Positions 1,600-64,000 of a stretch of DNA of 64,000 bases are shown piece after piece. Positions within the stretch are counted from its first letter, which is position 1. Every line of letters begins with the position of its first letter. A program made the position numbers and the translations under genes. The stretch comes from Apostichopus japonicus. Taxonomy: Eukaryota > Echinodermata > Holothuroidea > Aspidochirotida > Stichopodidae. The notes beneath the pieces were generated by a model. That model searched no databases. It worked only from the letters and a program-made list of their open reading frames with translations, and was not told the origin of the DNA. The stretch spans positions 9,621,001-9,685,000 of the forward strand of contig NC_092582.1 of assembly GCF_037975245.1 (NCBI RefSeq), written 5' to 3'.

Positions 1600-2452
1600 C
1601 TTCAAGCGGGTCAACAGATATGATAACATTGGTGACCTCAGATGACATGACCGTTAAGTTTGAAAATGTTCCACCACCCCATTCACAACTTGTCCCAAAA
1701 TATCAACCGTGTCACACCTTGGCATTGGGATTTAATTGCATTAAATGTCTAAAAATTAACTTTGAACTTGTATACATAACTTCACACACAAAGGTCACCC
1801 GTAGGTCAACCCATTGACATTTTTGATCGGTGGGACGTGTATATAGCATCAAAAACTATAAAAATTCAAACATTTTTTTCTTTGCCCATTTTCTCCCCCC
1901 CCAAAATACTCGTTTTTTAACATTAACTGACCTTTGATGACCTTGGATCACATGACCGTTAAGTTTGAAAATATTCCCCTATACCATTTGCAACTTGTCC
2001 CAAAATATCAACCGTGTCACACCTTGGCACTGGGAGTTATTGCACTAAATGTCTGCAGATTAACTTTGACCTCATATAACTTAAAACACAAAGGTCACCC
2101 TGAGGTCAACATGTTGACATTTTTGATCGGTGATACGTGAATATAGCATCAAACTATAAAAATTCAAACATTTTTTTTGGCCCATTTTCTCCCCCCAAAA
2201 TACTAGTTTTTTAACATAAATTGACCTTTGGTGACCTCAGATCACATGACCGTTAAGTTTGAAAATATTCCCCTATACCATTTGCAACTTGTCCAAAAAT
2301 ATCAACCGTGTCACATCTTGGAACTGGGAGTTATTGCATTAAATGTCTGAAAATTAACTTTGACCTCGTATAACTTCCCACACGAAGGTCACACAGGGGT
2401 CAACCTATTGACATTTATGATCAGAGGGTACCTTTGACATCTGAAAATAGCA
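1600..2452. repeat. Diverged tandem array, period about 295-300 bp, part 1
   Basis: Units are marked by CATGACCGTTAAGTTTGAAAAT near 1645, 1950 and 2245. Each continues through TATCAACCGTGTCACA, a TTGACCTC word and TTGACATTTTTGATCGG. The units are clearly homologous but diverged, so the array is old. The ORFs at 1437-1817 and 1934-2140 are the same repeat in two frames, not genes. A MITE inserted at 2460 interrupts the array, which resumes at 3797. Confidence 0.8.
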
Positions 2453-2459
2453 TCGAAAC

Positions 2460-3796
2460 CAGGGGCGTATCCAGGGGGGGGCGCAACAGGCGCGCGCCCC
2501 CCCTATTGGCCGTCACCAAAAAAAAAAAAAGTTTAGCCAAAAAAAAAAAAAAAAAATTGATGACGACCTTTATGTGAGATGTCGGTGATCGCTCAACCCC
2601 CCCCCCCCTCCCGTATGCTTAATTCTTGTTTGCCAAAAAAAGGTTCTGGCGAAGTTCGGCGGCATAATAGTTTTAGAAACATAGATGGTAATTGTGTTTG
2701 TATTATCACTATAAACAATAAGTGACATGCCAGCCATACTAAATTGTGCATTTTGTGTCCATATTTACTGGAAATGTTGCTTATTATTAAGGTCGAAAAA
2801 TGGATCACATATGGCCATGGGCGGCGATCCTGGGTGGAGGGGGGATATATCCCCCCATGAAAAGGGGTGGATGGGATGTAATGCACCATATCCCCCCCCC
2901 CCCACCAAATGCCAGGGATAAGAATATTTTCATGCCTACATTTATGCATCTTCGTTAATGTACGGCTCTTTTTTAGCTTCATTTCTCGCCTACCATAAAC
3001 GCAGTGCGATCTTTTCAAATAAAGCGTCTTTATAAAGCAAAAATAGTTGACTGTAGGCTTCATTGGCCCTATAACAACAAAATGTATTATTGCGCCCACG
3101 GTATTGATATAGTACATATATGCACCCTCATAGTATTCATATAGGCCCTATAGTAGGCCTACACACGTACATGTTCCCTCGAACAGCTGAGAATCTCATG
3201 TAACCAGGGTAATGCTTAATACACGTTTCACCTGGATGCCCTAGCAATCGGTACCTAGGAATGTAACTATGTGTAATTGTGTATTGCATGTGTATAGGCC
3301 TATAATAGCCTGCATGAGGCCATTTTCTTCATCGAATAATATAAAAGAGCTCTGGAACATTCTAACGTTGCGCCTGAAACAAGATTGACAGGGGCAATTT
3401 TCCCAAAATAACACCCGAAATTAAAAAAAAAAGTATTTTGGATCCTGATTATGAGATATTTCAGACATGACATCCCTATTTTAAAGTTGGGTATATGCCG
3501 CTTGGAAACCTCGGGAAGTGCCGTTTCCGGCCATCTAGAGGGTTTGTTAATCCCAAAATGTTCTTGTACGCTTCGCGCCAACCCATGGTGGCGCTAAGCT
3601 TAGACAGTCAACAAGGTCATATCCCCCCCCCCCACTCGGAAGTACGGATCGCCGCCCATGCATATGACACCATTTTGCATTTCAGCCCTTCTTCGAAAGC
3701 AAAAATTATACACCCCTCCCCTTAGACCCATCCCCCAGGACGGCGATCATTCATGCCTGGCGTCCCCCCTATTGGAAAATCCTGGATACGCCCCTG
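2460..3796. mobile_element. hAT-type MITE, family A, copy 1 (1337 bp)
   Basis: Both ends carry an inverted repeat starting CAGGGGCGTATCCAGG. The element sits inside a repeat whose uninterrupted form is visible near 4195, so the empty site is known. TCGAAAC is duplicated on both sides (2453-2459 and 3797-3803), a 7-bp target duplication that extends to 8 bp with one mismatch. CAGGGG ends and duplications near 8 bp are typical of hAT elements. Long G/C runs lie inside the ends and there is no transposase, so it is non-autonomous. It contains the shared GCGCCA core near 3500-3605. The 174-aa and 93-aa frames here are repeat translations. Confidence 0.88.
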
Positions 3797-5480
3797 TCGA
3801 AACTGTAAAAATCCCCAAACCACGTAAAGATCACCAGAGGTCAAATTGAGGTCAAGGATTAACCAGATGCAGGTTGACAATTGGATTACATTGAAGCAAC
3901 TCCCAACCCTAACGGACAATTTGTTCTCAAGTTATCGCAAAAATACTAGTTTTTTATCCTCAATTGACCTTTGGTGACCTTGGATCACATGACCGTTAAG
4001 TTTGAAAATATTCCCCTATACCATTTGCAACTTGTCCAAAAATATCAACGGTGTCACACCTTGGAACTGGGAGTTATTGCATTAAATATCTGAAAATTAA
4101 CTTTGACCTCGTATAACTTCGCACAGGAAGGTCACACGGGTGTCAACCTATTGACATTTATGATCAGAAGGTACCTTTTACATCTGAAAATAGCATCGAA
4201 ACTGTAAAAATCCCCAAAACACGAAAAGGTCACCAGAGGTCAAATGTAGGTCAAGGGTCACCCAGATGCGGGTCGACAATTGGATTACATGGAAGCAACT
4301 CCCAACCCTAATGGACAATTTGTTCTCAAGTTATCGCAAAAATACTAGTTTTTAATCATTAATTGACCTTTTGTGACCTTGGATCACATGACCGTTAAGT
4401 TTGAGAATGTTCCCCTATATACCATTTGCAACTTGTCCCAAAATATCAACCGTGTCACACGTTGGCACTGGGTGTTATTGCACTTAATGTCTGAAGATTA
4501 ACTTTGACCTCATATAACTTAACACACAAAGGTCACCTGGGCTCAACATATTGACATTTTTGATCGATGAGACGTGAATATAGCATCAAACTATAAAAAT
4601 TCAAACATTTTTTTTGGCCCATTTTCTCCCCCCAAAATACTAGTTTTTTAACATTAATTGACCTTTGGTGACCTCGGATCACCTGACCGTTAAGTTTGAA
4701 AATATTCCCCCTATACCATTTACAACTTGTCCAAAAATATCAACCGTGTCACATCTTGGAACTGGGTGTTATTGCATTAAATGTCTGAAAATTAACTTTG
4801 ACCTCGTATAACTTCGCACACGAAGATCACACGGGTGTCAACCAATTGACATTTTTGATCGGAAGGTACCTTTGATTTCCAAATCTAGCATCAGAACCAA
4901 ACATTTTCTTTTTTGCTCGTTTCCTCCCCAAATAAGCACATTTTTTCTAATGTGACCTTTGACCTTTTGACCTTGGTTTCAGATGTAGTTTTATCTCCTG
5001 ATTCCAAAAAACAAAACGAACAGTCTGTACAGCCATCCTAACTCCGACCAAAAAACTTTGACCCCAAATAACTTTGCACAAAAAGGGCACACGGGGTCAA
5101 CCTATTGACATTTATGATCAGAAGGTACCTTTGACATCTGAAAATAGCATCAAAACTGTAAAATTCCCCAAAAACACGTAAAGGTCACCAGAGGTCAAAT
5201 TGAGGTCAAGGGTCACCCAGATGCGGTCGACAATTGGATTACGTTGAAGCAACTCCCAACCCTAACGGACATTTCGTTCTCAAGTTATCGCAAAAATACT
5301 AGTTTTTTATCATTAATTGACCTTTGTTGACCTTCGATCACATTACCGTTATGTTTGGAAACGATCCCTTACCCCATTCACAACTACTCCCAAAATATCA
5401 ACCATGTCGGACCCTGTCAATGGGAGTTATTGCTGTTTTTAATATATTGGTTTTTGGCATCTAACTGACCTTTGAGGGCA
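3797..5480. repeat. Diverged tandem array, period about 295-400 bp, part 2
   Basis: This continues the array broken by the family A MITE. CATGACCGTTAAGTTTG-type words recur near 3988, 4387, 4682 and, degraded, 5340. Some units have an added segment (CCCAAAACACG... then AGGTCACCAGAGGTCAA). A direct-repeat nuclear-receptor-like word TGACCTTTGACCT lies at 4953-4965. No coding region is seen. Confidence 0.8.
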
Positions 5481-5828: not shown

Positions 5829-6575
5829 TGGATACTGTTCGCTGTTTCGCTATGTAGAGACGTTCCACTGCCAATCGTTTCTTGGCGATTTGCCAAGTTT
5901 AACTAAGAACAAGTGTTTCACGCACATAGTAAGAATGTTGTACAGTACTGTAGCATGCAAATCATCAGACGACAGCCTGCTTTACAATGATTTCCCACAT
6001 ACAGGTAAAATGTGAATTCCTTTTTTGGGGGATTTAATGGTCATGCATACTAAATGGGGAACAACGTGCAAAAACTTTTGAAGTGTTGTTTTGAACAGTT
6101 CCCGTGAAGCTGTATACTTGGGGAATTCCAAGGGCAGTGACAACGTGCAATGGGGTGAGTGATGAGGGGCTCTAAATACAAAAAATACAAAAAAAGATCC
6201 CAGGAAAATTCAGTGATCCACATGAAAAAACAAAGGTATCTCAGGAGAATTTTGAGGATCAAAACCCTTTCTAAATGCCACCATTTTGCATGTAGGCACC
6301 ATCAGGATTTGAAAAATTTTCAAAATGGGAGGGGGACACCCCCTCCCCTTATACCTCTCCCCCAGGACGCGGATCACTGTCACAAATTACCCTGCTCTAA
6401 AAATGGTCTGGTGACAGGAGGGAAATATGTAACAGGACAGAAATGAATTTATTAGAGCTGCAATTGTGTTACAGAAAATCAGGCTGTGTATAAATATGTA
6501 GATTTCATTTCAGGTTAAATGTCATGATAAACATTTACAAGGCCATACAAGTGGTTTAGGGTTGCCCAGCCCCCC
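5829..6575. other. Mostly unique sequence with a relic element
   Basis: No gene is supported. At about 6262-6375 there is a short relic (CACCATTTTGCAT, then AGGGGGACACCCCCTCCCC and CCCCCAGGACGCGGATCA). It resembles internal parts of the hAT-type MITEs and of the relics near 42950 and 58120. Confidence 0.5.
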
Positions 6576-9927: not shown

Positions 9928-10661
9928 GAAATATGTGTTATGCCAGACTAAATTGGTTAATATGCCTATTTTCCGTGAAGGAAAAGATATGGAATGGGTC
10001 GTCTGTACAGAGACAGACGCTGCAACTGCAATGCAATACAAAGTCTATGGTATACTTCGGACTAGGAACTTGAGGGGCACCCCTTCCTCCATGGTTAGGG
10101 CCTTTTAATTTCAAGAAAAATGTTAAGCATTTCTTCTTAATTCACTTCAAATTGGGGGAAAGAATTTCATAACTGGACGAGGCTACACCATCCAAAATTC
10201 GGGCAGCCTAAGAGGAGAAAAAATATATATATATATATAAATATGCAGTAGCTTGCCCGAATCTTTTTCATATTTTTGCCCGACAATTCCGTGGAGAGCG
10301 TTTTGTGTTATTTGTTTTGTGACATTAATATTAATATAGGCCTAATGATTTTTTTTATTTAAGCATCATGATGCCCGAATATTTCCGTGTAACATTACCG
10401 CAAGCGCAGCTCATCTGGGCTAGCACGCTTTTTGCACTATATCGCCCAAATTATTAACTAGGATCGCCGCTCACAATCGTCATGACAAGCATGCATGGAG
10501 ATTAGCAGTCTCTGAAGTGAAAAAACCGCAGTAAACATTTTTTTCTAACTAGTCAACTGTATACCTGAACATCCCCGACAAAAGAAACATTTTCTTTTTC
10601 ATGGACATAGGCGTAGGAGGCGGGGGGGCTGGGGGGGCTGCAGCCCCCAACCAATTTTTTT

Positions 10662-10948
10662 GGTGAAAATTCGGGCGATATGCTGAGAATTTTTCGGGCA
10701 TCTACTGAAAGAATCATAATTTGCAATGTGTTTTTGCAATTTTTTGGTGAAATTTCGGGCAATATGCTGAGAATTTTTCGAGCACCTACTGAAAGAAGAA
10801 TAATTTGCAATGTGTTTTTCAATTTTTTTGGTGAAAATTCGGGCAATATGCTGAGAATTTTTTCGGGCAACTACTGAAAGAATAATAATTTGCAGTGTGT
10901 TTTTCAAATTTTTTGGTGAAAATTTGGGCAATATGCTGAGAAATTTTC
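10662..10948. repeat. Minisatellite of 84-85 bp units inside the MITE
   Basis: Four units start at about 10662, 10747, 10831 and 10915, with the words GGTGAAAATTCGGGCAATAT, CTGAGAATTTTTCGGGCA and CTACTGAAAG. The last is cut by the inner element. Copy 2 of the host MITE has seven units, so the array has changed in number. Confidence 0.88.
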
Positions 10949-10950
10949 GG

Positions 10951-11317
10951 ATGCCCCCCCCCCCCCGACGGACTCAAATGGACTGCTGGTGCCCTTTTCA
11001 GCTTTTTACCACTTTTTACTTTTTCGCGATTATTGACTTATATATTGCGCTCTCAAATACCTATTGACATTTGTCACATTTTGTTGGTGCAATTTTCTGA
11101 CAAATGGCGATGATACCTATTTATTCTTCATTTATCTGCAAATTAGCAAGGCCTGGAAAGGGTCATTTCCGGCGATCTAGGGAGTATCTTTACTCAAAAA
11201 ATTTCTGTATGCTCCGCGCCAACCTGTGGTGGCGCTCCGCTTAGATAGTGTCGAAAGCGCCCCTACAGACCATTCTCTCCCCCCTCCCCCTGACCAATAC
11301 CTCTAGCTCCGCCACTG
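10951..11317 (-). mobile_element. hAT-type MITE, family B, truncated copy nested in another MITE
   Basis: It is the reverse complement of the element at 16657-17056. The right end GCTCCGCCACTG is intact, followed by the rest of a minisatellite unit (CACCTACTG). The opposite terminus is missing beyond a C run at 10954. It contains the shared GCGCCA core (about 11165-11250). Its position inside a minisatellite unit dates it after the host MITE. Confidence 0.8.
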
Positions 11318-11627
11318 GCACCTACTGTGTGCCTATGCCTACAATGTGTTTTTCAATGGTTAAACTTATATTATTATTATTATTATTATTATCATTATTG
11401 TTGTAACGACTTCCCCAATAATTATAACCAATATGGAAGGGTAATTACACGGAAAATGATTGTATGTTATTGGCATGTGATGTAATAACCAAAGAATGCC
11501 TATATAATATGCACATTAACATGTGGAACGCGCGCAGAGCGCACGAACAAGTTTGGTTATATTTTTCGGGCAAGTCGTTACAGCCCCCCCCCTAATCAAA
11601 TGAGGCTCCTACGCCTATGTTCATGGA

Positions 11628-12137
11628 TGGTGGGGGGGGGGGGTTGAGTGCCTACAAGCCTAAAAGTACAAGTTTATCATATTCTTTGTTATTTTTTATA
11701 CTTTTTTGTGAGACAAATTGCAGTCTCATCCGACACAGCGACATTTTTCCGCCTACAATGTATGTTTTTCCGGAGGTAGCTGAGTATTGTGTTAAAATAA
11801 TAAATACGGTAACTAAATAGGAGCTTAAAAAATATAAGGCCCTTTTTATCCCCTTGAAAGTGATTTTACCATTTTTTCTTCTTCTATTTACCAAATTTTT
11901 GGGGAAGTGTAAATTTCTAAACGCGAGATTATAAAATAAAGAATGTTTAGATGCAACTTGCAAGGCCTCAGAAGTGCCATTTCCTGCAATCTGAGAGGCA
12001 TTATTTGCCAAAAAAAAATCTTGTACGCTACGCGCCAACCGATGGTGGCGCTCCGCTTAGATGGTGTCACGGGAACTTTCGGGCACAAAATTTTCTGCCC
12101 CCCTCCCCCAAACCGAAATGGTCCCGTACGCCTATGA
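11628..12137. mobile_element. Relic MITE with shared core
   Basis: A right terminus GTACGCCTATG ends near 12137. The shared core lies at about 11960-12065 (GAAGTGCCATTTCCTGCAATC, then CTACGCGCCAACCGATGGTG). The left end abuts the neighbouring MITE and is not identifiable, so no target duplication can be read. The frames of 128, 100, 74 and 64 aa here are repeat translations. Confidence 0.6.
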
Positions 12138-12441: not shown

Positions 12442-13275
12442 GTGACAGGACAAAATCCCCCCGAGCCAAAATCCCCCTGGACAAAATCCCCCAAGCCAAA
12501 ACCCCCCCAGGACAAAATCCCCCCATGCTATAAAAAATCCCATCAATTCTTTACAAAAATGCGTCATCCCGGTCCCCCGGTCCCCCGGTACCGTCATCCG
12601 GTACCCCACCAGTACCCCCACTGGTACTCTCAGTGGTACCCTCAGTGGTTCCCGGACCAGTACCCTGACCAGAACCCCGACCATACCCCAACCGGTACCC
12701 TAATAGCCTGACAGTTACCCCCACCGGTACCCCCACCGGTACCCCCACTGGTACCCCCACTGGTACTCTCAGTGGTACCCCCACTGGTACTCTCAATGGC
12801 TCCCTGACCAGTACCCCAGCCCGTACCCCAGCCTGTACCCCGGCCGGTACCTCAACCCGTACCTCGACCGGTACCCCGACCGGTATCCCAACTGGTATCC
12901 TGAAAGGCACCCTGACATGTACCCTGACACGTACCCTTACTAGTACTGGTACAATGACCAGTACTTTAACAAGTACCTTGACCGGTAACATGAACAGTAC
13001 CTTGACCGGTACCCTCACAGGTATCCTAACAGGAGCCCTCACAGTTACGCTCGCCAGTACCCTCACTGGTACCCTGACCAGTCCCCTGACCGGTACCCTA
13101 ACCAGTGCAATGACCCATGCCTTGACTGTCACACCTGGGCCATCCCTGGTTGTTGCAGGCAGGCTTTGTATGGGTCAGGGGGATATTGTCTGGGGTGATC
13201 TTGTCCAGGGGGATTTTGGTTTGGGGGGATTTTGGCCGGGGGATTTTGGCTTGGGGGGATTTTGTCCTAGAACCC
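12442..13275. mobile_element. Foldback or Mutator-like element with GGGGGATTTTGG arms (834 bp)
   Basis: The left arm (about 12442-12535) is a short tandem series of CAAAATCCCCC words, and the right arm (about 13165-13270) is its inverted counterpart. The ends read GTGACAGGACAAAAT and, inverted, GGGTTCTAGGACAAAAT. ATCTACAGG (12433-12441) and ACCTACAGG (13276-13284) form a probable 9-bp duplication with one mismatch, a length typical of Mutator-like elements. The centre is a 12-mer array. There is no transposase. Confidence 0.75.
12570..13125. repeat. GGTACC-rich 12-bp tandem array
   Basis: Dozens of imperfect copies of a 12-mer such as ACCGGTACCCTG run through the centre of the foldback element. 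A unit length divisible by three keeps several frames open, giving artificial proteins: a VPVRVPVGVPVG pattern on the minus strand (193 and 133 aa) and a TGTLTGTLTS pattern on the plus strand (123 aa). These are not considered genes. Confidence 0.9.
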
Positions 13276-16333: not shown

Positions 16334-16341
16334 TTTATGTG

Positions 16342-17425
16342 CAGGCGCGGCGGAACGGAAAAATTATTGGGGGGCTAATGTGTGGAGACTATCTAAGCGG
16401 AGCGCCACCATCGGTTGGCGCGGAGCGTACAAGAAAATTTGGGGGTTTTCAAACCCCCAGATGGCCGGAAACGGCACTTCCCGAGTGTTTTATGCTGCGA
16501 ATACCTAGCCCTAAAATATGGGTCTCAAGCCTGCAATTTCTCAGATTACACGTAAAAGTCTGTAAAAAGATTTTAATTTGTATATTCGATGGTGTTTTAA
16601 GAGAGTAGCTATTACTCGTAGTGTACTCGCAAAGACGTTTTTGAGTGTAGTAAGGGCAGTGGCGGAGCTAGGGGTATTGGTCAGGGGGGCAAGAATGGTC
16701 TGTAGGTGCGCTTTCGACACTATCTAAGCGGAGCGCCACCACAGGTTGGCGCGGAGCATACAGAAAATTTTGGAGTAAAGATACTCCCTAGATTGCATTT
16801 AATGACCCTTTCCGGGCCTTACTAATTTGCAGATAAACGGAGAATAAATAGGTGTCGTCGCCATTTTGTCGGAAAATTACACCAAAAAAATATGACAAAT
16901 GTCAATAGGTATATGAGAGAGCAATAAAATAGTAAATAATCGCGAATAAGTAAAAAGTAGTGAAAAGCTGAAAAGGGCGCCAGCAGTCCATTTGAGTCCG
17001 TCAGGGGGGGGGGGGGCATCCGCTCCCTGACTGTATATATGGACGCTCCGCCACTAAGTAAGGTGGTGTTGGAGAACTGGCTGAAATGAGGCAAGTCATT
17101 GGCCTAAGACGAAGTTGTGTTATGCTTACCGGTACTCACACTCACTGCTTCCACTTTTCAAGGGGCGTGAAGACGCGGTTGGGGTGACAATGTGGTCTAT
17201 AGCCAGGGGACGGGCCGAGGGTCCCCCAGCAATTACTAAAATTATTACACCTATATAGCATACGTGTGCATCTGACAGATAGACAAGTATGCATTGAAAA
17301 ATGGGCAGATGCACGTTTCGGAGCCTTGGTAAATATTGGGGGGGCTTATCATGCATTTGCCCCCTCAACTTTTTCATTGGGGGGGCTGAGCCCCCCAAGC
17401 CCCCCCCCCGGTTCCGCCGCCACTG
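16342..17425. mobile_element. hAT-type MITE, family C, copy 1 with a nested insertion (1084 bp)
   Basis: The ends read CAGGCGCGGCGGAACGG and, inverted, CAGTGGCGGCGGAACCGG. A perfect 8-bp duplication TTTATGTG flanks it (16334-16341 and 17426-17433). The second copy is at 55846-56644 in the other orientation. It carries the shared core at about 16385-16490 and long G/C runs within the right end. A family B element is inserted at 16657-17056. The 101- and 113-aa frames are repeat translations. Confidence 0.92.
16657..17056 (+). mobile_element. hAT-type MITE, family B, full copy nested in family C (400 bp)
   Basis: It starts CAGTGGCGGAGC and ends GCTCCGCCACTA, an imperfect complement of the start (last base G changed to A). 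The flanks AGTAAGGG (16649-16656) and AGTAAGGT (17057-17064) give an 8-bp duplication with one mismatch. The homologous site in the other family C copy lacks this element, which confirms insertion. It contains the shared core at about 16710-16805. Confidence 0.9.
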
Positions 17426-17433
17426 TTTATGTG

Positions 17434-27360: not shown

Positions 27361-27978
27361 TCAAGAAGATTGACCCAATTTGATCACAAAGCAGAGCTCC
27401 CCGTCTAAGTTGTGCTTATCTATCTCTGACATGAGCAAAAACTCTTGATATTCCACCATTGCCTCCTCGGGTGACAGGATAACTGATCCAGTACTTGTTG
27501 CAGCTCCTAGTTCCATGATCCTCTCAAAATGATCCTCTTCTTTGTCCCCCATAATCTTAAAGCTGATGGTATCGTATGGGAACGTTGTACTAGCACCACT
27601 CTCAGGCCATTCCCCAACAGTAAGCGAAATGGACAAGAACTTTTGCCCACAGCTCCCTTCCCTATTGCACGTAACTTCAGCTGACATCGTGTGACCTTCC
27701 CGGGAGTGGAAATCTTTCGAATGGATTGTACAAGTAGCTAATTCACCTCTTTGGAGTATCTCTTCAGCTTGGATAGTCCACCATATGGTTCCATCTTCAA
27801 CCTGTTTGCAGTTATTCAGTTTACTTATTGAATTTTGGAGAAGTTCAATCTCTTTGGATTTCTCAAACACTGTTAGTTCCAAACTTGTAGTTATTTCATC
27901 CATATATTGGCTGACTTGTATTGCCTGAAGGAGTAACTGTAATTTGCACAGTGAATCAGTTAGACTCTCTGTCTGTTT
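27361..27978 (-). CDS. Last exon of a divergent TRAF-like protein (coiled coil plus MATH domain)
   Basis: The exon encodes 205 residues ending at TGA. It is preceded on the minus strand by a splice acceptor (TTTTTCATTGCTCTACAG) and opens in phase 0 at KQTESLTDSL. Residues 1-57 are heptad-like (LCKLQLLLQAI, EIELLQNSISKL), suggesting a trimerising coiled coil. Residues about 62-203 follow the MATH/TRAF-C order: DGTIWWTIQ, then HSKDFHSREGHTM, KFLSISLTV, DTISFKIM and GELCFVIKLG. In the family this domain binds receptor tails, and the coiled coil trimerises. The receptor-pocket motifs conserved in TRAF2/3 (RVYLNGDG, SSSF, ASGCP) are not recognisable, so the ligand may differ. No RING or zinc-finger exon was found in the window, so the N-terminus is unknown. 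The frame is intact, which argues against a pseudogene. Confidence 0.72.
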   Translation of the reverse strand, partial: KQTESLTDSLCKLQLLLQAIQVSQYMDEITTSLELTVFEKSKEIELLQNSISKLNNCKQVEDGTIWWTIQAEEILQRGELATCTIHSKDFHSREGHTMSAEVTCNREGSCGQKFLSISLTVGEWPESGASTTFPYDTISFKIMGDKEEDHFERIMELGAATSTGSVILSPEEAMVEYQEFLLMSEIDKHNLDGELCFVIKLGQSS

Positions 27979-28015
27979 CTGTAGAGCAATGAAAAACAAC
28001 ATCATGAAGCTACTT

Positions 28016-28630
28016 AAAATTACTCTACCTTAACTACCAGACCTAACAGAAGTAACCACTTATTGACCTCAAAGGATGTGACTCCCAAAGCAAACACTAT
28101 GTTACATGTACTGTACGCAATAGTTTGGATCCATGAACATACCATGAACTATATGAATACCTCCGTCCACACTATTCCTCAAGAGTATACTGAAATGGAC
28201 AAAGTTAACTGTGTGAGTGATACTGTATAGCTTGCTTTATATGTATAACAAAGGGTAAAATCACACTTTTTTTTTAGTTCAAAGGTCAAGTCAATGAGAG
28301 GTCAAGAATGAAATCCACTAAATTTTGTCCAAAGTAAATTACACTTGTTGTTTACACTTGGTTTCTGACAATCATATCAAACCAATCAGGTTTTATGTAT
28401 CTACCTCAGATTACAATTGATGTAACCTTTGTGTTTATTTCCAACTGATAAGGTAGGAAGCTACAATTAGTTTATTGCACCCAAATGCTTCTTCTGTTTG
28501 CTATTTATAATCATGTGAAGAGCTAGAACATTTGAAATTTAAAAATTTTGGATCATTCTAATTGTAATGTGAAATAAAGAATAATTATATTAATTAACAT
28601 TAAAATTTTAATTTTAACATAGCAAGTAAT
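28016..28630. other. Intron or intergenic DNA upstream of the TRAF-like exon
   Basis: On the minus strand this should be intron of the gene ending at 27361. It contains AGTTCAAAGGTCA (28276-28288), a DR1-like word. No further exon could be defended. Confidence 0.45.
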
Positions 28631-33143: not shown

Positions 33144-34009
33144 CATAGGCGAAGGAGGCGAGGGAGCTGCAGCCCCCCCAACCAAAACTTTTGGTGAAAT
33201 TTGGGCAATATGCTGAGAATTTTTCGGGCACCTGCTGAAAGAAGAAGAATTTGCAGTGTTTTTCCCTTTTTTTTGGTGAAAATTGGGTAATATGCTGGGA
33301 ATTTTTCAGGCACCTACTGAAAGAAGAATATTTTGCAGTGTGTTTTTCCCTTTTTTTTTGGTGAAAATTCGGGCAATATGCTGAGAATTTTTCGGGCACC
33401 TATTGAAAGAAGAATAATTTGCAGTGTGTTTTTCCCTTTTTTTGGTGAAAATTCGGGCAATCTGCTGGGAATTTTTCGGGCACCTACTGAAAGAAGAATA
33501 ATTTGCAGTGTGTTTTTCCCTTATTTTGGTGAAAATTCGGGCAATCTGCTGGGAATTTTTCGGGCACCTACTGAAAGAAGAATACTTTGCAGTGTGTTTT
33601 TCCCTTGTTTTGGTGAAAATTCGGGCAATCTGCTGGGAATTTTTCGGGCACCTACTGAAAGAAGAATAATTTGCAGTGTGTTTTTCCCTTGTTTTGGTGA
33701 AAATTCGGGCAATATGCTGAGAATTTTCGGGCACCTATTGAAAGAAGAATAATTTGCAATGTGTTTGTCAATGGTTAAACTTATATTATTATCATCATTA
33801 TTGCTGTAACGACTTCCCCAATAATTATAACCAATATTGAAGGGTAATAACACGGAATGAATTGAATGTTATTGGCATGTGATGTAATAACTGATGGATG
33901 CCTATATGATATGCACATGTAATTTACATGAAAAATATTGGTGATATTTTTCGGGCAAGTCGTTACAGCCCCCCCCCCCAAAAAATCAGATAAGGCTCCT
34001 ACGCCTATG
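33144..34009. mobile_element. CATAGGCG-ended hAT-type MITE, copy 2 (866 bp)
   Basis: The ends CATAGGCGAAGGAG and CTCCTACGCCTATG are inverted, and a perfect 8-bp duplication ATGCTATG flanks them (33136-33143 and 34010-34017). It lacks the nested family B element of copy 1. The sequence outside the array (ATGGTTAAACTTATATTATTA to TTTTTCGGGCAAGTCGTTACA) matches copy 1. Confidence 0.92.
33192..33775. repeat. Minisatellite of seven 83-85 bp units inside the MITE
   Basis: Units begin with GGTGAAAATTCGGGCAAT near 33192, 33275, 33360, 33444, 33528, 33612 and 33696. High identity between neighbours suggests recent expansion. It generates repetitive frames of 142, 139, 110, 93 and 86 aa (minus-strand motif ARIFTKTREKHTANYSSF), which are not genes. 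Confidence 0.92.
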
Positions 34010-51489: not shown

Positions 51490-51893
51490 ATAGATCAGGT
51501 GCCTAGCGAGGAATTTGGCAGGGGGGGGGGGGCGAATCATGTAGGCAAAGTATCTCAGCGTAGCGGCAAGAAAATTTTGGCCGAAAATGCCTCCCAGATC
51601 GCTGGAAATGGCACTTCCCAGGCCTGGTAAGTTGCATCTTGGCATTTTCTATTTTGAAATTACTAGCGATATCATAAAAAAAAATAAAAAAATATGCTCA
51701 AGGGGGGGGGGGGGGCATATAGCTATGATGGGATTTTTATACCGTATGCGTTGCAATATGCTGTTTGCTTCAATGTCCAGGGTCCAAATGGTTGGTTCCA
51801 GCATGTTGAGCAAACGGATCTCAGCTGCCGGCCAGCCATTTGTGTTATATTTGCACAGATGTACACGGTAGTCTGTAGGCCTATACCTACTCA
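51490..51893. mobile_element. Relic hAT-type MITE material
   Basis: G runs (51522-51533, 51704-51716) flank a partial shared core (about 51545-51620: TATCTCAGCGTAGCGGCAAG, then AGATCGCTGGAAATGGCACT). No complete terminal repeats or target duplication can be read. Confidence 0.55.
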
Positions 51894-52567
51894 CAAGGGC
51901 GGCGGAAGCATTTTTAATCGGGGGGGGGGGGGGGCACCGACATCGAAGGGCACTTTGCAGAAATTCGATTGGACTGATGCAGCCTTATATTTAGTACCCT
52001 TATTAACTCTTATTGTATTATCTTATTTGCGTATACACATCACTCCATCAACGCCCCCCCCCCCCCCTCAGGGAAAATATGAAATATATATATATATATA
52101 TATATATACTATAGTTGCAATATCCAATGTGCAAATTGGGAAACAAGGAACAAGTTTTCTTTTGAGACAAAATGAGGTGAAATCATGCTAGTTGCTAATG
52201 TAGGAATCTTCCGAATTAGAGTTTATTTCTTGTCAATTTCTTACAATTTTTTCCATTCGAAATAGCTTTGAGTTTGACCCTCAGAAATTCATTAAAAGTC
52301 AGGGGCGTAGCCAGGATTTGCAAAGTTGTTTGCACGACTATCTGAGCGGAGCGCCACCATCAGTTGGCGCGGAGCGTACAAGAAAATTTTTGGTTTTACA
52401 AACCCCTCAGATGGCTGGAAACGGCCCTTCCCGAGTGTTCATTCTGGTTCCCTGGCCTCTTGCTAACTTGAGACACCTCAATTTTTATGTAGAAAAATGG
52501 CACATTTTTAACCTGAGGAAAAGTGGGGGGCACGTGCCCCCTGTGCCCCCCGGTTCCGCCGCCCTTG
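51894..52567. mobile_element. hAT-type MITE, family D (674 bp)
   Basis: The ends are CAAGGGCGGCGGAA and GTTCCGCCGCCCTTG, inverted. A perfect 8-bp duplication CCTACTCA flanks them (51886-51893 and 52568-52575). The right half has an internal terminus-like CAGGGGCGTAGCCAGG (about 52300) followed by the shared core (52335-52440), so a second element may lie inside. An AT run covers about 52084-52108. The 165- and 86-aa frames are translations. Confidence 0.9.
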
Positions 52568-52948: not shown

Positions 52949-54291
52949 CAGGGGCGTATCCAGGATTTTCCAATAGGGGGGGCGTCAGGCATGAATGATC
53001 GCCGTCCTGGGGATGGGTCTAAGGGGAGGGGTGTACAATTTTTGCTTTCGAAGAAGGGCTGAAATACAAAATTGTGTCATATGCATGGGCGGCGATCCGT
53101 ACTTCCGAGTGGGGGGGGGGGATATGACCTTGTTGACTATCTGAGCGTAGCGCCACCATGAGTTGGCGCGAAGCGTACAAGAAAATTTTGGGATTAACAA
53201 ACCCTCTAGATGGCCGGAAACGGCACTTCCCGAGGTTTCCAAGCGGCATATACCCAACTTTAAAATAGGGATGTCATGTCCGAAATATCTCATAATCAGG
53301 ATCCAAAATACTTTTTTTTTAATTTCGGGTGTTATTTTGGGAAAATTGCCCCTGTCAATCTTGTTTCAGGCGCAACGTTAGAATGTTCGAGAGCTCTTTT
53401 ATATTATTCGATGAAGAAAATGGCCTTATGCAGGCTATTATAGGCCTATACACATGCAATACACAATTACACATAGTTACATTCCTAGGTACCGATTGCT
53501 AGGGCATCCAGGTGAAACGTGTATTAAGCATTACCCTGGTTACATGAGATTCTCAGCTGTTCGAGGGAACATGTACGTGTGTAGGCCTTCTATAGGGCCT
53601 ATATGAATACTATGAGGGTGCATATATGTACTATATCAATACCGTGGGCGCAATAATACATTTTGTTGTTATAGGGCCAATGAAGCCTTCAGTCAACTAT
53701 TTTTGCTTTATAAGACGCTTTATTTGAAAAGATCACACTGCGTTTATGGTAGGCGAGAAATGAAGCTAAAAAAGAGCCGTACATTAACGAAGATGCATAA
53801 ATGTAGGCATGAAAATATTCTTATCCCTGGCATTTGGTGGGGGGGGGGGGATATGGTGCATTACATCCCCTCCACCCATTTTCATGGGGGGATTTTCATG
53901 GGGGGGATATATCCCCCCTCCACCCAGGATCGCCGCCCATGGCCATATGTGATCCATTTTTCGACCTTAATAATAAGCAACATTTCCAGTAAATATGGAC
54001 ACAAAATGCACAATTTAGTATGGCTGGCATGTCACTTAGTGTTTATAGTGATAATACAAACTCAATTACCATCTGTTTCTAAAACTATTATGCCGCCGAA
54101 CTTCGCCAGAACCTTTTTTTGGCAAACAAAAAATAAAGCATACGGGAGGGGGGGGGGGGTTGAGCGATCACCGACATCTCACATAAAGGTCGTCATCAAT
54201 TTTTTTTTTTTTTTTTTGCTAAACATTTTTTTTTTGGTGACGGCCAATAGGGGGGGCGCGCGCCTGTTGCGCCCCCCTGGATACGCCCCTG
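52949..54291. mobile_element. hAT-type MITE, family A, copy 2 (1343 bp, inverted)
   Basis: It is the reverse complement of the element at 2460-3796 with near-full-length identity. The ends are CAGGGGCGTATCCAGG. GGACA is duplicated on both sides (52944-52948 and 54292-54296), only 5 bp, so either the duplication has decayed or this transposase gives variable lengths. The shared core is at about 53135-53250. The 205-aa frame is a repeat translation. Confidence 0.92.
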
Positions 54292-54296
54292 GGACA

Positions 54297-54880
54297 CTTC
54301 TATTGATAATGACGGTATAGCACGGTATAGCGCCTTTTATCTAGTGTATAACACCAGTTCGCAATGCATAAATATGCGGTATAGCAGTGTTTTTACGCGC
54401 AATTCGTGAATCTGTTTATGAGGACCAAAGTTGTAAGTGTTTTTCATTGATTTATATATTCTAACCATCATGAAAAGAATCACGAAGGCATTCTTTCCAT
54501 GCATGGCCAACCTATGAGGCTTTCCGTTTTTCCCTCAGATCGCGACACTAACGCCAGTATTGTAAGTACAGGTTTCCCCGTTGACTTTGGGCGTTGCATC
54601 CTGTCTGGGGCCTTGGCCCCTTTTTTCGGGGAATCAGGATATACTTCTGCCTTCCCCGAGCATGCCTGGGTGTCCCATCCTTTCCGCGGGACCCGTGTGG
54701 TTCGTTTGCGCCATTTCCCGGCCTCCCCGCCCTCATCTGGCCTAGTAGGACTCAGTTTAGGCAGGCCGTTCCCGCGGATTTTTCATATGACACATGTGAA
54801 CTGCTATTTCATGCAATCTGGGAGGAATATTTTTCAATAATTTTCAATAATGATGACGGCAAGTAGGCTAAATGTGACTA
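54297..54880. other. Interval with a GC-rich, CpG-containing patch
   Basis: About 54530-54780 is markedly richer in G and C than its surroundings (TTTCCGCGGGACCCGTGTGG, CCCGCGGATTT) and is not part of any repeat seen here. Overlapping frames of 113, 90 and 62 aa cross it without a recognisable domain. Confidence 0.45.
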
Positions 54881-55090
54881 CTCTGGCATGGCAGGGGTCT
54901 TGTTTTCAAGCATTGGAAGTGCCATTTCCTGCAATCTGGAAGGCATTTTTTCAAAATTTTCTCCAGTACGATAAGCGCCAAATATGGTGGCGAGAAGCGT
55001 AGTTTGACCTACCACGTCCCCCCGATAATTATGATAGATGGCCACACTCTGATCTGCCGTACAAATCCCAAATAGCTTCCGACGCCCCTG
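54881..55090. mobile_element. Relic hAT-type MITE end
   Basis: A right terminus CCGACGCCCCTG ends at about 55090. A degraded shared core lies at 54908-55005 (GAAGTGCCATTTCCTGCAAT, then GCGCCAAATATGGTGGCG). The left end is not identifiable. Confidence 0.5.
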
Positions 55091-55845: not shown

Positions 55846-56644
55846 CAGTGGCGGCGGAACCAGGGGGCTTGGGGGCGCTCAGCCCCCCAATGAAAAAGTT
55901 GAGGGGGCAAATGCATGATAAGCCCCCCCCCCCCATATTTACCAAGGCTCCGAAACGTGCATCTGCCCATTTTTCAATGCATACTTGTCGATCTGTCCGA
56001 TGCACACGTATACTATATAGGTGTAATAAGTTTGGAAATACTGGGGGACCCTCGGCCCTTCCCCTGGCTATAGACCACATTGTCACCCCAACTGCGTCTT
56101 CACGCCCCGTGAAAAGTGGAAGCAGTGAGTGTGAGTACCGGTAAGCGCAACACAACTTCGTCTTAGGCCAATGACTTGCCTCATTTCAGCCAGTTCTCCA
56201 ACATCCCCTGAAGGATATATCCTTCTGTGCAACTGCACATGGTTTTGGAATTACCCATTTGTTGACATTAAGAAATGCTTTCTGTTTTTTCTTATGCCAT
56301 TTATTTAATTATTGCATTTAATTGCAAGTAGTAATTTACTACACTCAAAAACGTCTTTGCGAGTACACTACGAGTAATAGCTACTCTCTTAAAACACCAT
56401 TGAATATACAAATTATGTTTTTACAGATTTTTACGTGCAATCTGAGAAATTGCAGACTTGAGATCCATAATTTAGGGCTAGGTATTCGCAGCATAAAACA
56501 CTTGGGAAGTGCCGTTTCCGGCCATCTGGGGGTTTGTAAAACCCAAAATTTTCTTGTATGCTCCGCGCCAAACGATGGTGGCGCTCCGCTTAGATAGTCT
56601 CCATACATTAGCCCCCCAATAATTTTCCCGTTCCGCTGCGCCTG
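55846..56644. mobile_element. hAT-type MITE, family C, copy 2 (799 bp)
   Basis: It is the inverted counterpart of 16342-17425 without the nested family B insertion. The ends are CAGTGGCGGCGGAACC and, inverted, CAGGCGCAGCGGAACGG. The flanks CCTAGGAG (55838-55845) and CCCAGGAG (56645-56652) give an 8-bp duplication with one mismatch. It has about 120 bp (56215-56335) absent from copy 1 at the nested site. The shared core is at about 56500-56600. Confidence 0.92.
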
Positions 56645-58067: not shown

Positions 58068-58403
58068 CAGTGGCGTAGGAAGGTACTTTTGAGTGGGGGG
58101 GCTGAAGACTGATGGCCGGCCTGGGGGAGGGGTCTAAGGGGAGGGGGTGTCCCCCTCCCCTTTGGAATTTGTTGCATTTCCAGGTAGCCTCAGATGCAAT
58201 TTGGTGCAATATAGCACACTTCAACACCCACTCCATTTTGTAAACTTAATTTTGTATTTTCACCAGGCCTTTTTTCTCATTTGGAAATGAAAAAGGGGTT
58301 TTCTGACTTGCGAAGCGGGGGGGCGGAATGATACTTCCGCCCCTCCACATTTTTCACTGGGGGGGCTGGCACCCCCCCAGCCCCCCCGGTTCCTACGCCC
58401 TTG
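58068..58403. mobile_element. hAT-like MITE, CAGTGGCGTAGGAA ends (336 bp)
   Basis: The ends are CAGTGGCGTAGGAA and, inverted, CAAGGGCGTAGGAACC, with G runs inside both. No matching flanking 8-mers were found, so the insertion is inferred from the ends alone. The interior word GGGGTGTCCCCCTCCCC is shared with relics at 6.3, 43.0 and 59.5 kb. Confidence 0.7.
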
Positions 58404-61110: not shown

Positions 61111-61914
61111 TCATGTGTCAGATGCATTAACCTCGATTTGAAGAAGAATGGTATCATTCTTAATGAACCCCTTCTGGGGATTCTCGACGTCTTCTTGCAG
61201 AGCAAAGAGAGGACATCCCGAAGCGATGTTCATTTCTCTTTGTGGTTTCGAGAATGAACTACTGCTAGGATCAGGCCTGAAGGCATCCTCGATGTGGGGC
61301 TTTCCCGACTGGTTCAACAACCTGAAACAGACTCGCCGCCGGAAGGGCCACTGCAGGAAACTGTCATGATCTCCTCTTTTGATGGCAAAGAAAATGGAGA
61401 GGTATTTGCCTTTGCCGACACCATCACCGTTCAAGTACACACGACCGCACATCTTGTAGCCCGTCCTCGACGTGAAGAAGGCTTCAGAGTAAAACGATGT
61501 CGGTCCCGTTGTGGCTGCCTCGAGTTTCCTCTTCCGATAATCCTTTATCTCCCAATTCAGTATCCCATCATCAGATAAATTTGCAATTCCTTCCAACTTC
61601 ATGGTCAGCTGTGCGATTTCAACACCCTGCATGGCAACTGTGTTCTGGAGGGCCAGAATGGCCTTCTCTTGACTCTCGTACAGCTTTGATAAGTCCTTCA
61701 GGACATTTTCTCGCTCTTTGCATTTGCCCGCAGAGGCCTCCAGTTTCCCATCGAGGAATCCCAACGCTTCTTGTACAATCTTCAACTTTTCCGAGTTCAC
61801 GGCCACTGCTCGTTTGGTGTTGTCGTTGTTACCTTTCGAGTCTAGGGAGAGGTCTTTGACGTTCGTCTCAAGATCGCTATAATTTGAAGCAGCTCCAAAC
61901 GCTTCATAGCTTAC
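61111..61914 (-). CDS. Last exon of a TRAF2/3-like adaptor: coiled coil plus MATH (TRAF-C) domain
   Basis: It encodes 267 residues to the stop, after a clear acceptor (CTTCAATTGCAG) in phase 0. Residues about 10-112 are heptad-rich (LYESQEKAILALQNTVAM), the TRAF-N coiled coil that trimerises. Residues 117-263 are a well-kept TRAF-C domain: DGILNWEIKDYRKRK, FYSEAFFTSRTGYKM, RVYLNGDGVGKG (158-169), YLSIFFAIKRGDHDSFLQWPF, RPDPSSSSF (213-221) and EMNIASGCP (227-235). The Arg, Tyr and Asp of RVYLNGDG, the serine cluster and the SGCP loop are the parts that bind TNF-receptor tails in TRAF1/2/3/5, so this copy should keep canonical binding. Such proteins link TNF-receptor and related receptors to NF-kB and MAP-kinase signalling in the cytoplasm. 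The RING and zinc fingers lie upstream, outside the window. Confidence 0.93.
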   Translation of the reverse strand, partial: VSYEAFGAASNYSDLETNVKDLSLDSKGNNDNTKRAVAVNSEKLKIVQEALGFLDGKLEASAGKCKERENVLKDLSKLYESQEKAILALQNTVAMQGVEIAQLTMKLEGIANLSDDGILNWEIKDYRKRKLEAATTGPTSFYSEAFFTSRTGYKMCGRVYLNGDGVGKGKYLSIFFAIKRGDHDSFLQWPFRRRVCFRLLNQSGKPHIEDAFRPDPSSSSFSKPQREMNIASGCPLFALQEDVENPQKGFIKNDTILLQIEVNASDT

Positions 61915-61974
61915 CTGCAATTGAAGTATAGATACATTGTATTATTTATTTATAATAATTTGCTATTAGTATTA

Positions 61975-63776: not shown

Positions 63777-63848
63777 GCGTCCATTGCCTATTTGGTTAGG
63801 GTGTCCGCGTACAAAGCGGGAGGCCCGGGTTCGTATCCCGGTGGAGGC
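63777..63848 (+). tRNA. tRNA-like sequence, cloverleaf-competent, anticodon ACA; probably a tRNA-derived SINE head or tRNA pseudogene
   Basis: The acceptor stem GCGTCCA pairs with TGGAGGC except at one position. The D arm GCCT/GGGT pairs with wobbles around ATTTGGTTA. The anticodon stem TCCGC/GCGGG closes the loop GTACAAA (anticodon ACA at 63811-63813). The T arm CCGGG/CCCGG holds TTCGTAT. Box B (GGTTCGTATCC) differs from consensus at one base. ACA would read Cys TGT, an anticodon animals normally lack, so a functional tRNA is unlikely. A second box B-like word GGTTTCGAACC lies just upstream (63751-63761). The flanking TA repeats and short 3' body fit a SINE. Confidence 0.55.
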
Positions 63849-64000
63849 TGGAAGTTTTTTCACTGTTCTTGATTTTCCAACTCATTACGATTTTCATTTA
63901 TATATATATATATATATTCATTCCATTAACATAAAGTTTTAAAATATATTCATTCCATTAACATAAAGTTTGTTCAAAGTATCTCTTTCGAGATCCGGCT

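What the first reader, a model, noticed from the sequence alone, without database searches (positions are those of the whole stretch)
16385..16490. One 110-bp core shared by transposon families with different ends
The order TATCTAAGCGGAGCGCCACC, then GTTGGCGCGGAGC, GTACAAGAAAATTTT, a short variable stretch and TGGCCGGAAACGGCACTTCC is seen in families A, B, C and D and in relics. Positions are about 3500-3605, 11165-11250, 11960-12065, 16385-16490, 16710-16805, 51545-51620, 52335-52440, 53135-53250, 54908-55005 and 56500-56600. The terminal repeats around it differ. GCGCCA...TGGCGC can form a hairpin. A core kept while the ends change suggests either a functional module (transposase or host-factor site, promoter, RNA structure) or repeated exchange of ends around it.
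Basis: partly seen in the sequence, partly recalled or inferred. Interest (0 to 1): 0.72.

Follow-up and report, generated by a model that had tools for sequence, protein, structure and literature searches.

The report
Shared left-end module in DNA transposons
Several small families of cut-and-paste DNA transposons in this stretch of what looks like an animal genome have different tips but carry the same roughly 93-base block just inside one tip, probably a landing pad for the enzyme that moves them, and the block may be swapped between families like a cassette.

Summary
Ten whole or partial copies of a ~93-bp core lie where stated, plus one short fragment. Each starts 39-89 bp inside a CA-type terminus, in the same orientation; the six complete elements have it at one end only. 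Five of those six (four insertion events) have 8-bp target duplications matching at 7-8 of 8 positions, pointing to non-autonomous hAT-type elements. Between families the core is far better conserved (mean identity 0.79 and 0.71 for its halves) than the 5' end (0.49) or the next 60 bp (0.51), which average near shuffled background. Between copies of one family it decays like the rest (6.1% against 4.1%, p=0.16). Constraint therefore acted while elements moved, not in resident copies. Ends and modules also look re-assorted in two single-copy elements. Best reading: a left-end recognition module, analogous to Hermes' BED-bound quasi-palindrome. RNA structure is not supported by covariation. Coral CMITEs are a published precedent. 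The host genome search did not complete (13 tries), so all rests on 64 kb.

The parts
16390..16482 (+). reference core, family A copy 1
16397..16404 (+). direct repeat 1 of the core, GCGGAGCG
   Evidence: sequence; register
16402..16421 (+). quasi-palindrome GCGCCACC-ATCGG-TTGGCGC
16420..16427 (+). direct repeat 2 of the core, GCGGAGCG
   Evidence: sequence; register
16440..16459 (+). variable stretch; in this copy a perfect inverted repeat with 9-bp arms TGGGGGTTT / AAACCCCCA
   Evidence: sequence; folds
16464..16475 (+). GCCG-GAAA-CGGC; stem keeps standard or wobble pairs in A, B, E and D2, broken at one or more pairs in C1, C2, D1 and F
16342..17425 (+). element A1 (interrupted by C2), tips CAGGCGCGGCGGAACGG / CGGTTCCGCCGCCACTG, TSD TTTATGTG 8/8 at 16334-16341 and 17426-17433
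55846..56644 (-). element A2, core at 56505-56596, TSD CTCCTGGG/CTCCTAGG 7/8
2460..3796 (-). outer element Bo1 (left module X), tips CAGGGGCGTATCCAGG, 7-bp repeat GTTTCGA on both sides
2816..3660 (-). nested element Bn1, tips CATGGGCGGCGATCC, TSD GTCATATG/GCCATATG 7/8; core at 3514-3606
52949..54291 (+). outer element Bo2, second copy of the same compound, 5-bp repeat GGACA
53084..53941 (+). nested element Bn2, core at 53138-53230
10948..11317 (-). element C1 (right end missing), core at 11156-11247
16657..17056 (+). element C2 nested in A1, tip CAGTGGCGGAGC, TSD AGTAAGGG/AGTAAGGT 7/8 if the last element base (17056) is taken as changed; core at 16721-16812
52300..52567 (+). element E: outer-B-like left terminus, A/B-like core (52339-52431), right tip like A's, no TSD
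11970..12136 (-). D1: left end CATAGGCGTACGGG (assigned by eye) plus core (11970-12063); right end not resolved
51496..51618 (+). D2 relic: left end CAGGTGCCTAGCGAGG (assigned by eye) plus core (51551-51618) with the quasi-palindrome deleted
54915..55090 (-). F relic: left end CAGGGGCGTCGGAAG (assigned by eye) plus degraded core (54915-55001)
54799..54846 (-). eleventh copy, a fragment of the second half of the core
58068..58403 (+). element G: no core, left module X instead, right end homologous to family A; no TSD

Best explanation
The core is a left-end subterminal recognition module of a group of non-autonomous hAT-type transposons. Shown: its position 39-89 bp inside one end, fixed orientation, absence from the other end, and conservation between but not within families. 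Inferred: it is a DNA site that a hAT transposase (or a host protein acting with it) must bind for transposition. The quasi-palindrome GCGCCACC-N5-TTGGCGC, overlapped by two GCGGAGCG direct repeats, would bind a pair of zinc-finger BED-type domains. The short TIR at the tip is read by the catalytic part and is free to diverge with each transposase lineage. Because the module is self-contained and lies beside the tip, recombination between elements can join it to other tips and right ends, which would explain the re-assorted elements E and G.
For: Between-family identity, mean of 15 pairs among six representatives (A2, Bn2, C2, D1, E, F; D2 and second copies left out): 5' end 0.49 (shuffled 0.44), core halves 0.79 and 0.71 (0.48, 0.45), next 60 bp 0.51 (0.48), next 60 bp 0.47 (0.47). 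Within three families core and rest diverge alike: core 17 of 279, rest 66 of 1592, p=0.16. Core starts 39-89 bp from a CA-type terminus in 10 of 10 copies, same orientation (F, the 89, is measured from core column 5; tips of D1, D2 and F assigned by eye). A search of the whole window with the core model finds no core at the right ends of the six complete elements. 8-bp TSDs matching at 7-8 of 8 in A1, A2, the nested Bn event and C2. Palindrome arms changed in 0 of 112 cells against 13 of 64 in the two GGAG tetramers (8 rows; D2 lacks the region, C1/C2 counted once; the one base shared by arm and tetramer is counted with the tetramer and is changed in F only). In F both tetramers changed in concert (GGAG to TTCT and TTAT; simulated p=0.0006, chosen after seeing it, one copy). 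Published: the Hermes left end carries a quasi-palindrome bound by two BED domains, and the right end binds none (PMC10368747, abstract and passages). hAT-derived CGGBP proteins mostly prefer CGG or CGC, some GCGC (PMC8097297, passages).
Against: No transposase is known for these elements: ten ORFs chosen from the 36 listed gave no hAT domain, and the genome search did not complete. The Hermes site lies at bp 11-27 and its motif is AAG(T/C); here the palindrome is farther in and its arms read differently. No significant similarity between the TIR and the core (p 0.09-0.47). E and G have no TSD, and outer B has a 7- or 5-bp one. In Bn1/Bn2 the core is more diverged than the rest (5/93 against 8/750, p=0.009). 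D2 lacks the palindrome altogether. A first comparison with loose gap costs gave a weaker contrast (core z 0.8-4.2, flanks -3.2 to 2.1).
Confidence: 0.5

Rival explanations
1. Inherited promoter or 5' untranslated region: the core is a regulatory piece of autonomous hAT elements (transcription-factor site or 5' UTR). Each small family was made by internal deletion of a different autonomous family and merely inherited it.
For: Position 39-89 bp inside one end only suits a promoter or UTR. Conservation between but not within families is expected if constraint acts in autonomous parents.
Against: No autonomous relative was seen in the window. It does not by itself explain mixed ends in E and G. 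The quasi-palindrome with direct repeats looks more like a paired binding site, but a transcription factor could read it too.
Confidence: 0.25
2. Passive hitch-hiking by exchange: the core has no function and looks conserved only because it was spread among families by recombination or gene conversion.
For: Re-assorted elements: G shares A's right end (identity 0.72, z 7.8-8.9) but carries module X; E has outer-B's left terminus (19/20) with an A/B-like core (core identities).
Against: Similarity between A and Bn fades gradually 3' of the core (0.90, 0.78, 0.64, 0.60, 0.48 in 50-column windows stepped by 25), as in common descent with varying constraint, rather than stopping at a breakpoint. 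Core differences between families run from 7% to 41% per half, so the sharing is not all recent. Conversion in place would also keep within-family cores alike, and they are not.
Confidence: 0.15
3. Structured RNA: the core is transcribed and kept as an RNA fold.
For: On the core strand 8 of 8 copies fold better than the mean of their shuffles (z -0.8 to -3.0); on the opposite strand z runs from +0.2 to -1.8. The variable stretch is self-complementary with different letters in A2, C2 and D1 (p 0.017, 0.0095, 0.034; A1 0.0005), and each of these three pairs best with its own other arm (best of 6 permutations). RNAalifold finds 2 of 18 pairs with both sides changed in some copy.
Against: No Rfam match at the core (gathering threshold). 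Alignment covariation term is +0.69, i.e. unfavourable. Arm permutation over seven families does as well in 414 of 5040, over five in 12 of 120; E, B, D2 and F alone are not significant (p 0.11-1.0). The palindrome has no compensatory change, and the GAAA hairpin is broken in C1, C2, D1 and F. The perfect hairpin of A1 may come from template-switch mutation at quasi-palindromes, a known process (PMC3820800, passages).
Confidence: 0.07
4. Plain common descent with drifting ends and no special constraint.
For: A and Bn share weaker similarity in the 60 bp 3' of the core (0.69, z 8.5) and in the right end (z 3.3-3.4); some 5' ends are weakly alike (z up to 4.1).
Against: In 15 of 15 family pairs both core halves score above the 5' end and above the next 60 bp, though the second half only narrowly in C2-D1 (0.61 against 0.59 for the 5' end).
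Confidence: 0.03

Closest known systems
CMITE families of Acropora corals (PMC2872659)
   Same: MITE families with different TIRs share an internal region (75 bases there) that is better conserved between families than the TIRs; its origin is unknown and a role in transposition was proposed.
   Different: CMITEs are ~100 bp, piggyBac-type with TTAA target sites, and the core fills the element. Here the elements are about 270-860 bp (A1 measures 1084 with C2 inside) with 8-bp target duplications, and the core lies beside one end only.
Hermes (hAT) left end with BED-bound subterminal repeats (PMC10368747)
   Same: A quasi-palindromic subterminal site at the left end, bound by BED domains there and not at the right end. 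That hAT elements make 8-bp target duplications is recalled.
   Different: The Hermes palindrome is at bp 11-27 with AAG(T/C) half-sites. Here it is about 51-97 bp in, GC-rich, and shared by families with different TIRs. No transposase is known here.
Pegasus-like MITEs, e.g. silkworm BmMITE-13 to -16 (PMC2997013)
   Same: 8-bp target duplications and TIRs CAGTGGCGG.., CAGTGGCGTA.., CAAGGGCGGATCC.., close to several of the tips here.
   Different: I saw only passages; they class these families by TSD and TIR and say nothing about a shared core.
hAT-derived CGG-binding proteins and the hAT-19 group (PMC8097297)
   Same: BED plus Hermes DNA-binding domains that prefer CGG, CGC or GCGC motifs; motifs of four hAT proteins match their own subterminal regions. 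The core palindrome is rich in these letters.
   Different: No protein of that kind has been linked to these elements; only motif flavour is shared.

Membership tests
hAT superfamily (non-autonomous member; defining features recalled) | 8-bp target-site duplication | tested here: met
   A1 8/8, A2 7/8, Bn 7/8 (one event seen in two copies), C2 7/8 with its last base taken as changed; none in E and G, 7 and 5 bp in outer B
hAT superfamily (non-autonomous member; defining features recalled) | short TIR beginning CA and ending TG | tested here: met
   CAGGCGCGG.., CATGGGCGG.., CAGTGGCGG.., CAGGGGCG..; C2's right end reads CTA by one change
hAT superfamily (non-autonomous member; defining features recalled) | mobilised by or derived from a hAT transposase with BED and dimerisation domains | not tested
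   whole-genome search unanswered in 13 tries; 10 of 36 listed window ORFs scanned, no hAT domain
CMITE | internal region better conserved between families than TIRs | tested here: met
CMITE | TTAA target site and piggyBac-type CC[C/T]T tips | tested here: not met
   8-bp TSDs and CA-type tips
Hermes-type left-end BED site | quasi-palindrome in the subterminal region of one end only | tested here: met
Hermes-type left-end BED site | AAG(T/C) half-sites in the palindrome | tested here: not met
   arms read GCGCCACC / TTGGCGC
Hermes-type left-end BED site | binding by BED domains | not testable with these tools
   needs the transposase and a binding assay
structured RNA | match to a known RNA family | tested here: not met
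   Rfam at gathering threshold: only a tRNA at 63777-63849
structured RNA | compensatory base changes | tested here: inconclusive
   covariation term unfavourable, 2 of 18 pairs with both sides changed; arm permutation 414 of 5040 over seven families, 1 of 6 over A2, C2, D1
Pegasus-like MITE | 8-bp TSD with CA[G/A][T/G]GGCG tips | tested here: inconclusive
   C2 meets both at its left tip. A's right tip reads CAGTGGCG but its left tip CAGGCGCG; Bn reads CATGGGCG; E and G have such tips but no TSD (published tips)

The most novel reading that the evidence does not exclude
The core is an exchangeable left-end address cassette, one of at least two (core and module X) used by this transposon group. 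Tips and right ends belong to separate transposase lineages, while the cassette is read by a shared protein. Non-autonomous elements would gain new transposases by swapping tips around a constant cassette, and the GGAG tetramers beside the conserved palindrome arms would be the family-specific part of the address.
Probability: 0.2. Interest if true: 0.65.

Novelty: new variant of a known kind. Interest (0 to 1): 0.42.

Why it matters
Interiors of different MITE families are typically much more dissimilar than their tips (so the CMITE paper). Here the reverse holds, in elements with 8-bp duplications, with the conserved block at one end. If it is a left-end recognition site, it gives a natural mutagenesis series (unchanged arms, variable tetramers, one palindrome deletion) for how a hAT transposase finds one end, for which I saw a structure only for Hermes. 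If cassettes are swapped, it offers a route by which parasites of transposons change hosts.

Tried and rejected
Core as a doubled TIR: the GGCGCGGAGC arm looks like CAGTGGCGGAGC, but alignment of each TIR with its own core is no better than shuffled TIRs (p 0.086 to 0.465 over seven rows). Rejected.

RNA fold. Single-copy folds are modestly better than shuffles, alignment covariation is unfavourable, and the arm permutation over all families is not significant. Kept only as a weak rival.

First attempt at core against flank identity used loose gap costs, which gave a shuffled baseline too high to be useful and a weak contrast (core z 0.8-4.2, flanks -3.2 to 2.1); repeated with stricter costs.

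Relatives elsewhere: exact patterns gave 0 hits in viral contigs and 0 then 2 in genome contigs. In the two hits (L001, L002, bacterial MAG contigs) the core model matches 29 and 27 bases around the palindrome and nothing of the rest of the core: taken as chance. The collections hold prokaryotes and viruses, so absence says nothing about animals.

Literature: one paper holds GCGGAGCGCCACC (listing only; on Drosophila nucleolar stress, not opened); none holds any of six other core words. Ten searches in all, of the held open-licence library only.

Full report
What is there. The window looks like animal DNA (inference): it holds an ORF with a TRAF/MATH domain (61111-61938, E=2.9e-40) and a tRNA. 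The species was not determined. A core of about 93 bp occurs ten times, whole or partial, at the stated places, plus one fragment at 54799-54846. Its reference copy is 16390-16482: a quasi-palindrome GCGCCACC-ATCGG-TTGGCGC (16402-16421) overlapped by two direct repeats GCGGAGCG (16397-16404, 16420-16427), then TACAAGAAAATT, a variable self-complementary stretch, and TGGCCGGAAACGGCACTTCC.

The elements. A1 (16342-17425) and A2 (55846-56644) have tips CAGGCGC[GA]G.. and ..CCGCCGCCACTG and target duplications TTTATGTG (8/8) and CTCCTGGG/CTCCTAGG (7/8). C2 is nested in A1, with duplication AGTAAGGG/AGTAAGGT if its last base is taken as changed. E (52300-52567) has no duplication. D1, D2 and F are left ends or relics whose tips I assigned by eye. 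In 10 of 10 copies the core starts 39-89 bp inside a CA-type terminus, in the same orientation (F, the 89, is measured from core column 5). The core model, run over the whole window, finds no core at the right ends of the six complete elements A1, A2, Bn1, Bn2, C2 and E. Calling the core's end 'left' is a definition; the constant orientation and distance are observations.

Core against flanks. Over 15 pairs of six family representatives, mean identity counted over all alignment columns is 0.49 for the 5' end (shuffled 0.44), 0.79 and 0.71 for the halves of the core (0.48, 0.45), 0.51 for the next 60 bp (0.48) and 0.47 for the 60 after that (0.47). Both halves are above both neighbours in 15 of 15 pairs, the second half only narrowly in C2-D1. 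An earlier run with loose gap costs showed a weaker contrast. A and Bn stay alike in the 60 bp after the core (0.69, z 8.5) and then fade step by step, which fits common descent. Between copies of one family the picture differs: A1/A2 5.4% core against 5.1% (5' part) and 6.4% (3' part), C1/C2 7.5% against 8.9%, Bn1/Bn2 5.4% against 1.1% (p=0.009), pooled 17/279 against 66/1592 (p=0.16). Once landed, the core is not protected. Its conservation was therefore imposed between bursts, on lineages that kept moving (inference). That argues against a host function and against conversion in place, and for a cis requirement of mobility or an inherited part of autonomous parents.

Fine structure. In eight rows the palindrome arms show 0 changes in 112 cells, while the two GGAG tetramers beside them show 13 in 64; the one base shared by arm and tetramer is counted with the tetramer and is changed in F. 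D2, which lacks the region, was left out and C1/C2 counted once. In relic F both tetramers changed in the same way (TTCT, TTAT), which random placement of its 12 substitutions matches in 0.06% of trials. This was noticed before it was tested and is a single copy. The arms do not vary, so they offer no covariation evidence.

Mixed ends. Element G (58068-58403) has no core (score 18 against shuffled 17.0) and carries instead a left module X (..GGGTCTAAGGGGAGGGG..) that it shares with outer B (z 16) and with a fragment within 6240-6400 (z 26). Yet its last 90 bp match family A's (identity 0.72, z 7.8-8.9), not outer B's (0.45, z 2.5). Element E has outer-B's first 20 bases (19/20), an A/B-like core (0.85-0.93) and a right tip close to A's; its last 90 bp are nearest outer B's (z 5.1) and less near G, Bn and A (z 3.4-4.6). 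So left modules, tips and right ends do not seem to be inherited as one block. Both E and G lack target duplications, so either could be a local fusion of two elements.

The hairpins. On the core strand 8 of 8 copies fold better than the mean of their shuffles (z -0.8 to -3.0). The variable stretch folds on itself with different letters in A2, C2 and D1 (p 0.017, 0.0095, 0.034) and most strongly in A1 (0.0005), but not significantly in E, B, D2 and F; over seven families arm-swapping does as well in 414 of 5040, over five in 12 of 120, and for A2, C2 and D1 alone the true pairing is the best of 6. The alignment's covariation term is unfavourable. A1's perfect arms against A2's imperfect ones (A2-like in E and B) look like template-switch perfection of a quasi-palindrome, a known mutation type (PMC3820800, passages). 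RNA structure is not needed.

Mechanism. I favour a left-end recognition module (0.5): shown are place, polarity, one-sidedness and conservation between but not within families; inferred are protein binding, the role of BED-type fingers and the need for it in transposition. In Hermes a left-end quasi-palindrome is bound by two BED domains and the right end by none (PMC10368747, abstract and passages). hAT-derived CGG-binding proteins prefer CGG, CGC or GCGC (PMC8097297, passages). Position and AAG(T/C) motif of Hermes are not met here, so this is 'works like', not 'is'. The main rival is an inherited promoter or 5' UTR (0.25).

Known or new. [quoted passage not shown] abstract, part 1 of 2 of the Results, and Discussion read). 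They are piggyBac-type with TTAA sites. Several tips here resemble Pegasus-like MITEs (PMC2997013, passages). In ten literature searches of the held library I found no description of this core; Repbase could not be searched. I rate it a new variant of a known kind.

Limits. The evidence comes from one 64-kb window: seven families at most, several known from one copy. The host genome could not be searched, and no collection of animal genomes was at hand.

Noticed in passing
58068-58403, 52949-53083, within 6240-6400: A second left-end module (module X, GGGTCTAAGGGGAGGGGGTGT) shared by elements with different tips; in G and the 6240-6400 fragment it is followed by CCCCCTCCC, giving a G/C-run inverted repeat.
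   Followed up: partly
17336-17425, 55846-55935, 53852-53941, 58314-58403, 52478-52567: Right ends of A, Bn, G and E share a layout of G-runs and C-runs before the tip; A and G are clearly homologous there.
   Followed up: partly
11342-11619 and 33757-34009: Two copies of a further element with tip CATAGGCGTAGGAGCC and a G-run but no core.
   Followed up: partly
10571-10950 and 33144-33812: Tandem arrays of an 84-bp unit at two places 22 kb apart, up to about 90% alike.
   Followed up: no
12569-13111: 12-bp-periodic GGTACC-rich array, open in several frames.
   Followed up: no
1629-5433: Cluster of about 300-bp repeats in tandem and dispersed copies; outer element Bo1 is inserted in it, and a neighbouring repeat (4139-4219) reads through the site without it.
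   Followed up: no
61111-61938(-) and 27364-28029(-): ORFs with a TRAF/MATH domain (E=2.9e-40) and a MATH match below the curated cut-off (E=0.0015), probably TRAF-like gene pieces.
   Followed up: no
16440-16459 against the same stretch of A2: Three clustered differences make an imperfect inverted repeat perfect, a likely template-switch mutation (read).
   Followed up: partly
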